Source: Acidobacteriota bacterium
GTDB lineage: Bacteria > Acidobacteriota > Blastocatellia > Pyrinomonadales > Pyrinomonadaceae
Length of the DNA stretch: 34,935 bases
Assembly (NCBI GenBank): GCA_020200235.1
Contig: JAIVJC010000150.1
Coordinates: 1-34,935, forward strand
Direction: 5' to 3'
The notes beneath the pieces were generated by a model. It was not told the origin of the DNA. It worked only from the letters and a program-made list of their open reading frames with translations, and ran no database searches. Both the position numbers and the translations under genes were made by a program. Position 1 is the stretch's first letter. Each line of letters starts with the position of its first letter. This document shows, one piece after another, positions 963 to 30,720 of the stretch.

Positions 963-1044
963 GAACGATGAAGTAGGTACGATGAATGATGAACTGAAGG
1001 CAATGCTTTTACTTCATCGTTCAACGTTCCTACTTCATCATTGC
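963..1044. repeat. Heptad-phased imperfect inverted repeat (ACGATGA/ATGATGA-type arms)
   Basis: acgatga agtaggt acgatga atgatga actgaag ... acttcat cgttcaa cgttcct acttcat cattgct; gaacgatgaagta (963-975) is the exact reverse complement of tacttcatcgttc (1010-1022). Confidence 0.85.
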
Positions 1045-6856: not shown

Positions 6857-7073
6857 CGGAAGTTTTATGATTGGCGCGCGCGAAGGGGGCGCGCTCTCAG
6901 CGTGCGGCGCGAGCCGTGGCACACGGCTTCGGCGTCCAATATGTTTTAGGTTTACGGGTGAACAAGTAAGTTTAAGTTTACGAGCCGGGTCGTGAATCGT
7001 CAAGGAAGTGGTCTGTCGGCGAGCCGCGCGGGAGTCGTGTGGCGTCGCTTCGCGCGATTTGTTATAGTTCGGG

Positions 7074-7190
7074 CAATCAGCAATCAGCCGTCAGCAAACA
7101 GCCCGAGCCGAGCGCGCAAGTTTTGTCGGCGACGTTGTTGCCCCGCTTCGATCATTCCGGCTCACTGCTGATTGCCGAACGCTGACTGCT
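7074..7190. repeat. Heptad-phased imperfect inverted repeat (ATCAGCA-type arms)
   Basis: Left: c aatcagc aatcagc cgtcagc aaacagc (7074-7102); right: ctcactgctgattgccgaacgctgactgct (7161-7190). Confidence 0.75.
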
Positions 7191-12846: not shown

Positions 12847-12940
12847 TTTGTCAGTCGTCAGTTGTCAGTCGCTGAATTCGTCCCGGTCGTTTGCCCTTCA
12901 TTTGTTAATGACGGACAACTGACCACTGACTACTGACAGC
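12847..12940. repeat. Heptad-phased imperfect inverted repeat (GTCAGTY-type arms)
   Basis: ttgtcagtcgtcagttgtcagtc (left) versus gacggacaactgaccactgactactgacagc (right); 7-nt spacing of the TCAGT/ACTGA cores. Confidence 0.8.
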
Positions 12941-14769: not shown

Positions 14770-14790
14770 CCGTAACGGGTGACAGGGAAA

Positions 14791-14872
14791 AGTAATGAGT
14801 GATGAGTGATGAGTGATGAGTACGAATTGCTTTCACTCACTACTCATCACTCATCACTCATCACTCATCACT
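14791..14872. repeat. Heptad (GTGATGA)n inverted repeat, 32-bp arms with 1 mismatch, 18-nt loop
   Basis: agtaatgagtgatgagtgatgagtgatgagta (14791-14822) / tactcatcactcatcactcatcactcatcact (14841-14872). Weaker flanking complementarity: cgtaacgggtgac with ccacccgtcacgg. Confidence 0.95.
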
Positions 14873-14885
14873 TTCTCGCCACCCG

Positions 14886-15848: not shown

Positions 15849-15851
15849 AAG

Positions 15852-15930
15852 GTGATGAGTGATGAGTGATGAGTGATGGGTGGATGAGTCAGGGTTGTTA
15901 CTCATCACCCATCACTCATCACTCATCACT
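15852..15930. repeat. Heptad (GTGATGA)n inverted repeat, 31-bp arms with one bulge, 10-nt loop
   Basis: ...agtgatgagtgatgagtgatgggtggatgagt (left, ends 15889) / actcatcacccatcactcatcactcatcact (15900-15930). Confidence 0.95.
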
Positions 15931-15935
15931 TTAGT

Positions 15936-26549: not shown

Positions 26550-29072
26550 GTGCAAAGCTCCGCCTCCTCAGTGAATCAGGTCATTCGCGACGCCCACGAA
26601 TCCCCGCCCGTGCTCTACGCCGAGGTCGCAGTCCCCTTGCGAGTGCAGGGGACGTTCACGTACCGGCTGCCCGAAGCCCTGCGCGAAGAGGCACGTGTCG
26701 GCTCGCGTCTGCTCGTCCCGTTCGGCCGGCAGTTGATCACGGGCTACGTCGTCGCGCTGCACGAGGAGCTTGACGCGGCGGTCGAAGTCGCCGACGCGGA
26801 GATCAAGGACGCCGAAGAGCTGCTCGACGCAGAGCCGCTCTTCACGCCGGATGTGTTGGAGATCACACGCTGGATCGCGGACTACTACGCCGCGCCGTGG
26901 GGCGAGGTCTTGAAAGCCGCGCTGCCCGCGGGTCTGAACGCGACGGTCGAGCGCGTGCTCTCGATCACGGCGGAGGGGCGCGACGAGCTGGCGCGTCTGC
27001 CCGCGCGCAGAGCCGCGGCGGCGAAGACGCAGGCTCTGCGCCTGCTCGCCGAAGGGTCGGAGCTGCCGCTGCGCCGGCTCGCGCAGGAGTTCGGTCAGGC
27101 GCGCGCACTCTCGCTCACGCGGCAGCTGGAGCGGGCGGGCTGGCTCACGGTCGTCCAGCGCCAGCGCAGCGCGCAGGCGCGAGCCAAGCGGCGCAAAGCC
27201 GTCAGGCTTTTACCCGTCGAGCGGCACGAGAACGGCGCGGCGCGCGCGCTGACGGAGGCGCAGAGCCGCGTCGTCGAAACCCTGATCGCGCGCGGCGGTG
27301 AGCTGCTCTTCTCCGAGCTGCTCGACGCGGCTCAGGCGGGCGCGTCCACCGTGCAGACGCTCGAACGACGCGGCGTCGTCGAGATCATCGTCCGCGACGT
27401 GCGGCGCGATCCGCTCGCGCGCGCCGTGCTGCCCCCGGATCAGAAGTTGACGCCCACCGGGGAGCAGCGCGCGGCGCTCGACGAGATCGAGGCTGGGATC
27501 GCCGAACGCGCCTACCGCGCTTTTCTGCTGCACGGCGTGACGGGGAGCGGCAAGACCGAGATTTACATCCGCGCCATGCGCGCCGCGCTCGAACAGGGTA
27601 GAGCCGCGATGATGCTCGTCCCCGAGATCGCGCTCACGCCCGTCTTCTCGCGGCGGCTCCGCGCCCACTTCGGCGACGAGGTCGCCATCTTCCATTCGTC
27701 CCTGACCACGGGCGAGCGGTTCGACGAGTGGAGCCGCATCAAGCGGGGCGAAGCGCGCGTCGTCATCGGCACCCGCTCGGCGGTCTTCGCGCCCGTCCGC
27801 GACCTCGGCGTGATCGTCGTCGACGAGGAGCACGAGTCTTCTTACAGGCAGCAGGAGTCGCCCTACTACCACGGGCGCGACACCGCCGTGATGCGCGCGC
27901 ACCGCGAGCGCGCCGTCGTCGTCCTCGGCTCCGCCACGCCCTCGCTCGAATCGTTCCACAACGCGCGCGCCGGAAAATACCGCTACCTCCAGCTCTCGAA
28001 GCGCATCGCCGACCGCGCGATGGCGCGCGCCGAGATCGTGGACATGCGCGAGGTCTTCGCGCGCGAGGGCAAGCAGGTGGCGCTCTCGGAAGACTTGTTG
28101 CGCGCCATCGGCGAGACGCACGCGCGCGGCGAGCAGTCGATAGTTCTCTTGAACCGGCGCGGCTACTCGGCCTTCGTCCTCTGCCGCTCGTGCGGCGAGC
28201 GCATGCAGTGCCCGAACTGCGACGTGACGCTCACCTTCCACCAGCGCGAGCGCAGCCTCGTCTGCCACTACTGCGACTTCCGGCAGCGACCGCCGACGCA
28301 GTGCCCGGCGTGCAAGGGTCAATACATTTTTTACGTCGGGGAGGGCACGGAGCAGATCGAGGAGTTGATCCGGGGGAAGTTCCCTTCCATGCGGATCGCG
28401 CGGCTCGACCGCGACACGACCTCGCGGCGCCACACCTACGAGGAGGCGATCCTGCGCTTCGCCGCGGGCGAGCTGGACATGCTCGTCGGCACGCAGATGA
28501 TCGCGAAGGGGCACGACTTCCCGAACGTCACGCTCGTCGGCGTCGTCTCCGTGGACGCGGGACTCGCGATGCCCGACTTCCGCGCGTCCGAGCGCACGTT
28601 CCAGCTCATCACGCAGGTCGCGGGTCGCGCGGGTAGAGGCGACCGCGCCGGGCGCGTCATCATCCAGACCTACCACCCGCAGCACTACGCCCTGCGCCAC
28701 GCTTGCGCGCAGGACTACGACGGGTTCTACGACGAGGAGATCCGCTACCGCAAGAACCTGAGCTATCCGCCCTTCGTCTCGCTCGCCGCGCTGCTGGTGC
28801 GAGGGAGCGAGCTGGGGCGCACGCTCGCGACCGCCGAGACGTTGAAGGACGCGCTCGACGGGGCGAACGCGGATCGCTCCTGCCGCGTGCTCGGTCCCGC
28901 GCCCGCGCCGCTCGCGCGTCTGCGCGGCGAGCACCGCATCCAGATACTCCTGAAGTCGCGGAGCCGCCCGCGACTGCGTAACGTCCTCGACCTCGCGCTC
29001 GCCGACGCAGCCGCGCGCGGCTGCGATCTGCACGCCGTCAACGTCGAGATCGATCCCGTGAATTTGATGTGA
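26550..29072 (+). CDS. priA: Primosomal protein N' (replication restart helicase PriA)
   Basis: LLHGVTGSGKTEIYIRAM, VDEEHESSYRQQESPYYHGRD, zinc-binding CRSCGERMQCPNCDVTLTFHQRERSLVCHYCDFRQRPPTQCPAC, GTEQIEELI. GTG start. Confidence 0.96.
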   Translation: MQSSASSVNQVIRDAHESPPVLYAEVAVPLRVQGTFTYRLPEALREEARVGSRLLVPFGRQLITGYVVALHEELDAAVEVADAEIKDAEELLDAEPLFTPDVLEITRWIADYYAAPWGEVLKAALPAGLNATVERVLSITAEGRDELARLPARRAAAAKTQALRLLAEGSELPLRRLAQEFGQARALSLTRQLERAGWLTVVQRQRSAQARAKRRKAVRLLPVERHENGAARALTEAQSRVVETLIARGGELLFSELLDAAQAGASTVQTLERRGVVEIIVRDVRRDPLARAVLPPDQKLTPTGEQRAALDEIEAGIAERAYRAFLLHGVTGSGKTEIYIRAMRAALEQGRAAMMLVPEIALTPVFSRRLRAHFGDEVAIFHSSLTTGERFDEWSRIKRGEARVVIGTRSAVFAPVRDLGVIVVDEEHESSYRQQESPYYHGRDTAVMRAHRERAVVVLGSATPSLESFHNARAGKYRYLQLSKRIADRAMARAEIVDMREVFAREGKQVALSEDLLRAIGETHARGEQSIVLLNRRGYSAFVLCRSCGERMQCPNCDVTLTFHQRERSLVCHYCDFRQRPPTQCPACKGQYIFYVGEGTEQIEELIRGKFPSMRIARLDRDTTSRRHTYEEAILRFAAGELDMLVGTQMIAKGHDFPNVTLVGVVSVDAGLAMPDFRASERTFQLITQVAGRAGRGDRAGRVIIQTYHPQHYALRHACAQDYDGFYDEEIRYRKNLSYPPFVSLAALLVRGSELGRTLATAETLKDALDGANADRSCRVLGPAPAPLARLRGEHRIQILLKSRSRPRLRNVLDLALADAAARGCDLHAVNVEIDPVNLM

Positions 29073-29093: not shown

Positions 29094-29978
29094 ATGAGAC
29101 TTTCAGAGCTTGCAAAACGGACGGGCGCGACGGTCGAGCCGGCAGATGCCGCCGACGTGGAGATCGAAGGTGCCGCCGGTCTCGACGAAGCCGGGGCGGG
29201 ACACGTCACCTTCCTCTCGAACCCGCGCTACACGCCGCGCGTGCAGACGACGCGCGCCTCCGCGATCTACCTCGCCGAGGGCGTCGAAGCGGGCAGGGAG
29301 ATCGCCGTCCTGCGTGCGCGCGATCCCTACCTCGCCTACACGCGCGCGCTGCGCGTGTTCCACCCCGAGCCCGAGGTCGAGCCCTTCGTGCACCCGTCGG
29401 CGGTGATCGACGAGACGGCGCGCGTTCACGAGTCGGCTCGCGTCGGCGCGTGCGTGGTCGTCGGCAGGGGCGCCGTCGTCGGCGCGGGCGTTCACCTGCA
29501 CCCGAACGTGACGATCTACGACGGGGTCGAGGTCGGCGAGGACTCCGTCATCCACTCCGGCGTCGCGCTGCGCGAGGGCACGCGCGTCGGCGCGCGCGTG
29601 CGCATCCACAACAACGCCGTCATCGGCTCCGACGGGTTTGGCTACGCGAAGGACGAGGAGAGGCGCTGGCTGAAGATTCCGCAGGCGGGGCGGGTCGTCG
29701 TCGAAGACGACGTGGAGATCGGCGCGGGCACGACGATTGATTGCGCGTCGGTCGGCGAGACGCGCATCCGGCGCGGCGCGAAGATCGACAACCTCGTGCA
29801 GATCGGTCACTCGTGCACGGTCGGCGAGGACGCGCTCGTGTGCGCGCAGGTCGGCTTGGCGGGCAGCTCGCACGTCGGCAACCGCGTGATCCTCGCGGGA
29901 CAGGCGGGCGTCGCCGGGCACCTGAGTGTCCTTCACTTCATCGTTCATCGTTCATACTTCATCGTTTGCTTTACGTGA
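29094..29978 (+). pseudogene. lpxD: UDP-3-O-acylglucosamine N-acyltransferase, C-terminally truncated
   Basis: MRLSELAKRTGATVEPADAADVEIEGAAGLDEAGAGHVTFLSNPRY...; LbH repeats; catalytic-His region IDNLVQIGHSCTVGED. After AGQAGVAGHLSV it ends with the repeat-derived tail LHFIVHRSYFIVCFT*. Confidence 0.85.
29931..29970. repeat. Single-arm heptad array (TTCATCG type)
   Basis: cttcact tcatcgt tcatcgt tcatact tcatcgt ttgcttt; no opposite arm found nearby. Confidence 0.85.
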
Positions 29979-30720
29979 CAGCGCCGCCGTCGATGATGAC
30001 GACCTCGCCGTTCATGAAGCTGTTGCGGTCGGAGACCATAAAGGCGGCGTACTCTGCCAGCTCCTCGGGTCGCCCCATGCGCCCCTTCGAGACCCAGAAC
30101 TCGTGCATCTGTAAGAGGCGCTCGGGCAGCGTGTGCGCGAGGTCCGTGTCGAAGATTCCGGCGGCGATGGCGTTGACCGAGATGCCGAAGTTCGCCGCCT
30201 CGCGCGACAGGCACTTGGTGAAGCCGATCATCGCCGCCTTCGACGTGGCGTAGTGGACCGAGGTGGGGAGCGCGCGGATCGCGCCGACCGAGGTGATGTT
30301 GAGGATCGAGCCTTTGCGCTGGCGGATCATCTGCCGGTAGATGGGCTTCGTGACGGCGAAGAGGCTGCCGACGTTCGTCTCGATCACCTCGTCCCACGAG
30401 CGGTCGGTCGTCGTCGCGAAGTTGTCGCCGCGGTTGATCGCCGCGTTGTTGACGAGCACGTCCACGCCGCCCCACTCCTCGACGAGCTGGCGCGTCAGCT
30501 TCTTCATCCCGACGCGATCCGTGACGGAGACTTTGAACGGGTGCGCGCGACGCTGGTGCGCGCGCACTTTTCCGGCGACCTCCTCGGCGAGATCGTCGCG
30601 CGACTGGTAGCTGAACGCCACGTCCGCGCCCTCGCGTGCGAAGACCTCGCACATCGCCGCGCCCAAGCCCCGCGTCCCGCCGGAGATGAACGCGCGCTTA
30701 CCTTCCAGCAGCAGACTCAA
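29971..30720 (-). CDS. Short-chain dehydrogenase/reductase (FabG-like)
   Basis: AFISGGTRGLGAAMCEVFAREGADVAFSYQS, NNAAINRGDNF, YATSKAAMIGFTKCLSREAA, NSFMNGEVVIIDGGAVT. Confidence 0.94.
   Translation of the reverse strand: MSLLLEGKRAFISGGTRGLGAAMCEVFAREGADVAFSYQSRDDLAEEVAGKVRAHQRRAHPFKVSVTDRVGMKKLTRQLVEEWGGVDVLVNNAAINRGDNFATTTDRSWDEVIETNVGSLFAVTKPIYRQMIRQRKGSILNITSVGAIRALPTSVHYATSKAAMIGFTKCLSREAANFGISVNAIAAGIFDTDLAHTLPERLLQMHEFWVSKGRMGRPEELAEYAAFMVSDRNSFMNGEVVIIDGGAVT

What the first reader, a model, noticed from the sequence alone, without database searches (positions are those of the whole stretch)
29925..29978. lpxD is truncated exactly at a heptad-repeat array
The LpxD reading frame is conserved through AGQAGVAGHLSV, then becomes LHFIVHRSYFIVCFT*, the translation of TTCATCG-type heptads. 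The expected last stretch (end of the LbH domain and C-terminal helices, estimated around 60 aa) is missing. The convergent SDR gene retains a normal C-terminus (IIDGGAVT*). Only one arm of the element is present, unlike the other loci. This suggests repeat-mediated deletion or element insertion that removed the gene end, or an assembly misjoin at a repeat.
Basis: partly seen in the sequence, partly recalled or inferred. Interest (0 to 1): 0.68.

Follow-up and report, generated by a model that had tools for sequence, protein, structure and literature searches.

The report
Gene end lost at repeat hairpin
A second copy of the lipid-A gene lpxD in a soil acidobacterium has lost its last fifth where it meets half of a small hairpin element built from 7-base repeats; such hairpins occur hundreds of times in this genome, and the same arms flank small 'four-helix-bundle' genes, which suggests an undescribed family of miniature elements.

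Summary
lpxD (29094-29978) is normal to codon 279, then runs into one arm of a TTCATCG hairpin. 75 of 76 fully readable homologs continue to at least 332 aa. The missing tail is nowhere else in the 87.6%-complete assembly; a full-length lpxD lies beside lpxA on contig C64. In the same genus, and in another genus of the family, a complete hairpin sits between full-length lpxD and the same convergent SDR gene. So a local deletion of about 210-270 bp, from lpxD into the hairpin loop, fits best. A misjoin between repeat copies fits poorly, but a local assembly error cannot be excluded without reads: three related contigs also end at this spot.

The hairpin belongs to a large class: 49 two-armed heptad hairpins in 395 kb, in several heptad families. 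In 16 related genomes, 27 of 28 PF05635 (four-helix-bundle, 23S IVP) genes lie between inverted arms, mostly heptads. All five such genes here do, each with a different heptad; one has the lpxD heptad. RAYT-type Y1 transposase genes do not (0 of 18 have heptad flanks). I propose that the hairpins are ORF-less relatives of these elements. The link is shown; mobility is inferred.

The parts
29094..29978 (+). priA-linked second lpxD, truncated: 279 LpxD codons plus 15 codons read from the repeat; stop overlaps the SDR end
29930..29931 (.). deletion junction: end of codon V279 (GTC) / start of CTTCAC, the inner end of the hairpin's right arm
   Evidence: sequence; alignment with relatives; loop list
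29931..29967 (+). surviving right arm of a GATGAAC/TTCATCG hairpin; left arm and loop missing
   Evidence: TRF 29937-29966; canonical two-armed copies; no partner arm
29971..30720 (-). convergent SDR (FabG-like) gene, complete; same neighbour in relatives
26550..29072 (+). priA, immediately upstream of this lpxD
963..1040 (.). complete two-armed hairpin of the same GATGAAC/TTCATCG family
   Evidence: z -8.5
12849..12938 (.). two-armed hairpin, GTCAGTT/AACTGAC family
14788..14875 (.). two-armed hairpin, GATGAGT/ACTCATC family; absent at the same place in G001 and G019
   Evidence: z -11.3
15849..15932 (.). two-armed hairpin, GATGAGT/ACTCATC family
   Evidence: z -10.8

Best explanation
The array is the right half of an intergenic heptad hairpin that once stood complete between lpxD and the convergent SDR gene. 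A single deletion of about 210-270 bp, probably by replication slippage at the hairpin, ran from just after lpxD codon 279 into the hairpin loop and removed the end of lpxD, its stop codon, the left arm and most of the loop. The frame now runs 15 codons into the remaining arm and stops. The product keeps the uridine-binding domain, the catalytic His region and most of the left-handed helix, but lacks the last coil and the C-terminal ACP-recognition helices, so it is probably inactive; the full-length LpxD beside lpxA makes the loss tolerable. The hairpin itself is an ORF-less member of a class whose ORF-bearing members carry a PF05635 four-helix-bundle gene between the same arms. Shown: truncation, one arm, ancestral order, absence of the tail, full-length paralog, PF05635 association. 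Inferred: the slippage mechanism, loss of LpxD activity, and mobility.
For: No homolog ends here: 75 of 76 with a readable stop run to 332 aa or more. In G001 (same genus) the SDR is followed by a complete TTCATCC hairpin and then the lpxD tail; in G019 the order lpxD - TTCATCA arms - SDR lies on one contig, with 212 bp from the codon-279 position to the right arm. The tail is not in G000 (best E 1.08). Full-length lpxD (365 aa, profile 1-323 of 325) is on C64 after lpxA and before lpxB and an lptD-like gene. The remnant starts exactly at the canonical inner end of the right arm (CTTCAC|TTCATCG). Hairpin-stimulated slippage deletions are established (PMC4134008). The last 60 residues of LpxD hold the ACP-recognition region (alignment to E. 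coli chain 4ihg residues 12-288 of 348; PMC6820557).
Against: The assembly is a MAG and reads were not available. The remaining frame is intact, and the window branch has 20 amino-acid changes against 22 on the G001 branch, so there is no sign of decay: the deletion must be recent, tolerated, or not real. Three related contigs (G001:C376, MAG45 L157, G004:C301) end within 25 nt after codon 279 or at codon 272, so the place is hard to assemble or polymorphic. Microhomology at the junction is at most a few bases. No closely related strain with the intact locus was found.
Confidence: 0.65

Rival explanations
1. Local assembly error: the cell has full-length lpxD, and the assembler collapsed or chimerised the hairpin region, or mixed strains.
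For: MAG of 258 contigs; three related contigs end at or within 25 nt of the same spot; no sign of relaxed selection in the remaining lpxD; strong hairpins are hard to sequence and assemble.
Against: A misjoin between repeat copies would leave repeat sequence on both sides, but lpxD runs cleanly to codon 279 and joins mid-hairpin; the two neighbours are the ancestral ones; the missing tail is not on any other contig; other genes ending at hairpins that could be checked are complete (BirA, glycerate kinase).
Confidence: 0.25
2. Insertion: a one-armed element inserted into lpxD and displaced its end.
For: Such hairpins are numerous and their occupancy differs between genera (14788 absent in G001 and G019).
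Against: A hairpin already stands between lpxD and SDR in G001 and G019; an insertion would leave the old lpxD tail between the array and the SDR, and it is gone; one-armed arrays are the exception.
Confidence: 0.05
3. The truncated protein is a working, specialised LpxD that no longer needs the C-terminal helices.
For: Open frame, normal rate of change, catalytic region kept.
Against: The C-terminal region is present in all other readable homologs but one and is the ACP-recognition region (PMC6820557).
Confidence: 0.05

Closest known systems
REPINs / REP elements with RAYT transposases (PMC3116915)
   Same: High-copy intergenic hairpins, inverted arms, several families per genome, each family associated with one gene copy; thought to be non-autonomous mobile DNA.
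   Different: Arms are tandem heptads; the associated gene is PF05635, not a Y1 transposase. 0 of 18 Y1_Tnp loci in the same genomes have period-7 flanks.
23S rRNA intervening sequences (IVS) with S23p/IVP ORF, e.g. Coxiella (PMC4990558)
   Same: Stem formed by inverted ends, PF05635-family ORF inside; Coxiella's IVS even has tandem heptamers (GACAGAT) before the ORF.
   Different: These lie between protein genes, are mostly ORF-less and occur in hundreds of copies.
Heptanucleotide tandem repeats (TAACTGA of Beggiatoaceae and cyanobacteria; PMC4679880)
   Same: Abundant intergenic heptads with stop codons in three frames on one strand.
   Different: Those are direct repeats upstream of start codons, with one inverted case; here two inverted arms form a hairpin that abuts gene ends.
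Avd of diversity-generating retroelements
   Same: Homologous four-helix-bundle fold (PMC10053308).
   Different: No reverse transcriptase (RVT_1) detected in G000.

Membership tests
LpxD (TIGR01853) | score above the curated cut-off | tested here: met
   305.7 bits, cut-off 242.5
LpxD (TIGR01853) | full-length profile coverage including the C-terminal ACP-recognition region | tested here: not met
   profile 2-275 of 325; present in 75 of 76 homologs
REPIN / REP | high-copy intergenic hairpin with inverted arms | tested here: met
   49 in 395 kb; fold z about -8.5 to -11.3; the lpxD copy has lost one arm
REPIN / REP | same arms beside a RAYT (Y1_Tnp) gene | tested here: not met
   0 of 18 Y1_Tnp loci with period-7 flanks
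REPIN / REP | GTAG/CGTC tetranucleotide tag of REP superfamilies | not tested
   -
23S IVS / IVP element | PF05635 ORF between inverted arms | tested here: met
   For the class: 27/28 in related genomes vs 14/111 shifted controls, 5/5 in G000, 16/22 in more distant genomes vs 1/88. Not for the lpxD copy, which has no ORF
23S IVS / IVP element | location in 23S rRNA | tested here: not met
   elements lie between protein genes
23S IVS / IVP element | excision by RNase III | not testable with these tools
   needs RNA
DGR Avd | reverse transcriptase in the genome | tested here: not met
   no RVT_1 match in G000
Heptanucleotide direct repeats (TAACTGA type) | direct, not inverted, arrays upstream of start codons | tested here: not met
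   79 of 92 arrays have an inverted partner arm; elements abut gene ends, mostly in tandem or convergent gaps

The most novel reading that the evidence does not exclude
Heptad-armed hairpins and PF05635 four-helix-bundle genes are one class of mobile element spread over several phyla: members with the ORF in the loop act on ORF-less hairpins with the same heptad, in the way RAYTs are thought to act on REPINs, and 23S rRNA intervening sequences are rRNA-resident members. The lpxD deletion is collateral damage of such a hairpin.
Probability: 0.5. Interest if true: 0.85.

Novelty: new variant of a known kind. Interest (0 to 1): 0.6.

Why it matters
The deletion alone is a small, probably recent gene loss buffered by a paralog. 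The element behind it matters more: PF05635 proteins are common, have no known function outside diversity-generating retroelements, and have been known mainly from rRNA intervening sequences. If they belong with heptad hairpins, both the role of these proteins and the origin of heptad repeats become testable, and 23S intervening sequences gain a family.

Tried and rejected
Search for the missing lpxD tail elsewhere: none. Natural shorter homologs: none except L214, 249 aa, not looked into. Other genes cut at elements: two with good family models are complete, several had no informative model, so truncation is not a general habit. RAYT origin of the hairpins: rejected for the heptad class. DGR function of the PF05635 genes: no reverse transcriptase in G000. 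Clean empty-site comparison for target duplications: flanks in G001 and G019 too diverged. Correlation of PF05635 number with hairpin density over 15 genomes: only Spearman 0.42, p 0.12; presence/absence is clearer. In G010 the match between PF05635 arm heptads and loose hairpins is weak. Searches failed for input reasons.

Full report
Setting. The window is the whole of contig C84 of a 4.08-Mb, 258-contig metagenome-assembled genome, 87.6% complete. Named relatives are Pyrinomonadaceae (Acidobacteriota, group 4), including Pyrinomonas methylaliphatogenes K22; family membership of the window is inferred from these.

Observation. The lpxD frame at 29094-29978 scores well above the LpxD cut-off but stops at profile position 275 of 325. 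Homology ends at codon 279 (GTC, 29928-29930). The next base starts CTTCACTTCATCGTTCATCGTTCATACTTCATCGTTT (29931-29967), which the frame reads as LHFIVHRSYFIVCFT before TGA. The convergent SDR gene is complete. The double heptad is not chance.

Is the short end natural? Of 78 homologs read in frame, two run off a contig, one (L214) stops at 249, and 75 reach 332 aa or more, with the conserved block GDDAVLTAKSATSHDVPAGK..SGIPAFDN..WLR.TAAFRRLGEM in the near relatives. A search with that tail found it in the same-genus genome G001 but nowhere in G000.

Ancestral state. In G001 the order read from the SDR is SDR stop, a complete two-armed TTCATCC hairpin, then the lpxD tail, whose stop codon TGA lies in the hairpin arm. 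In G019, a different genus, lpxD, TTCATCA arms and the SDR lie on one contig; 212 bp separate the codon-279 position from the right arm. Ten relatives have lpxD and SDR on one contig, 17 to 1565 bp apart. The window therefore keeps the two neighbours and the SDR-side arm and lacks what lay between: about 200 bp of lpxD, the left arm and most of the loop.

The remnant is a precise half. Two-armed copies in G000 read AACGATGAAGTATGAACGATGAACGATGAAGTGAAG - loop of about 10 bases - CTTCACTTCATCGTTCATCGTTCATACTTCATCGTT. The window copy starts exactly at the inner CTTCAC. Complete copies fold with z-scores of about -8.5 to -11.3 as single-stranded DNA; the remnant gives -1.3. Slippage at hairpins is known to give such deletions (PMC4134008); this step is inferred. 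Shared bases at the junction are at most a few.

Consequence. The lost part corresponds to roughly the last 60 residues of E. coli LpxD, which hold the C-terminal helices that bind ACP (PMC6820557). A full-length LpxD of 365 aa stands after lpxA and before lpxB and an lptD-like gene on C64. Most relatives have both copies; some lack the priA-linked one. Loss of this copy is therefore plausible. However, the rest of the frame is intact and shows no faster change than in G001 (20 against 22 amino-acid changes), so the event is recent, tolerated, or an assembly error. Contigs of G001, MAG45 and G004 end within 25 nt after codon 279 or at codon 272. That is why I keep an artefact at about one in four.

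The element class. In 395 kb of G000 there are 61 period-7 arrays against 0 to 6 for periods 5, 6 and 8-11; 79 of 92 arrays at a looser threshold have an inverted partner within 160 bp. They form 49 hairpins, about one per 8 kb, in families such as GATGAAC, GGATGAA, GATGAGT, AACTGAC/AACGGAC, GGAATGC, GTGACAG and TTAGCTA, mostly flush with gene ends. The sample leans towards contigs known to hold TTCATCG. Genome-wide, TTCATCGTTCATCGTTCATC at up to 3 mismatches gives 588 matches in G000 and none for the reversed control; these overlap within arrays and are not element counts. At orthologous gaps, other genera hold hairpins of other heptad families: 963-1040 is GATGAAC here, GGAATGC in G001 and GTGACAG in G019.

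Link to PF05635. One long-loop hairpin (C200:42825-43265) encloses a four-helix-bundle protein of the 23S IVP family. Searching that family in relatives, 27 of 28 genes were flanked by inverted arms (14 of 111 shifted controls) and 21 of 28 by a period-7 array (4 of 111); 20 of 20 further genes from the class had inverted arms. In genomes reached through more distant loci, whose record titles name other phyla and other Acidobacteria, the figure was 16 of 22 against 1 of 88. All five genes of G000 are flanked, each by a different heptad; C256:31104-31400 has the GATGAAC/TTCATCG arms of the lpxD remnant and is a TIGR02436 four-helix-bundle protein, with a solved relative 2RLD. The five heptads of G000 occur at 12, 0, 6, 19 and 3 places in the sample, against a mean of 0.7 for heptads of other genomes' genes (25 of 29 zero; rank test p 0.0004); the count of 12 includes the C200 element itself. 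Hairpins number 89 in 1314 kb of genomes with the gene and 1 in 280 kb of five genomes without it; genomes are related, so this is supportive only. Y1 transposase genes of the same genomes have inverted flanks of another kind but no heptads (0 of 18). Coxiella's 23S intervening sequence also has heptamers before its S23p ORF (PMC4990558). I found no paper describing this link in the library searched, which holds open-access papers only.

Verdict. Ordinary part: a probably real local deletion at a hairpin, tolerated because of a paralog. Unusual part: the hairpin belongs to a heptad-armed class tied to PF05635 genes. Association is shown; movement, and which part acts on which, is not.

Noticed in passing
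L261 (G000:C256:30600-31900): PF05635 four-helix-bundle gene between GATGAAC/TTCATCG arms, the same family as the lpxD remnant; its start codon lies inside the left arm.
   Followed up: yes
L102 (G000:C200:42825-43265), L260, L262, L236: Four further PF05635 genes of the genome, each between arms of a different heptad.
   Followed up: yes
window 963-1040, 12849-12938, 14788-14875 and orthologous gaps in L122, L124, L126, L123: The same intergenic gaps hold hairpins of different heptad families in different genera, or none.
   Followed up: partly
L004/L150 (G001:C376), L157 (MAG45), L012 (G004:C301): Three related contigs end within 25 nt after lpxD codon 279 or at codon 272: assembly difficulty or a polymorphism at this place.
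   Followed up: no
L238, L241, L243, L259; L281, L300, L303: Some PF05635 genes have inverted arms with other spacing (GAGTCTGGC-like, apparently 9 bases; 8-base units in other genomes).
   Followed up: no
L042 2246-2365: In G001 the lpxD stop codon is supplied by the hairpin arm; one strand of GATGAAC arrays carries TGA in all three frames.
   Followed up: partly
window 7073-7190: GCAATCA/TGATTGC arms some 80 bp apart: an imperfect long-loop hairpin near the aconitase gene; G001 has a different palindrome there.
   Followed up: no
L372, L375 (G000 C186, C133): Two RAYT-like Y1 transposase genes; C186 is flanked by GCCCACGGC..GCCGTGGGC palindromes, a separate REP system.
   Followed up: partly
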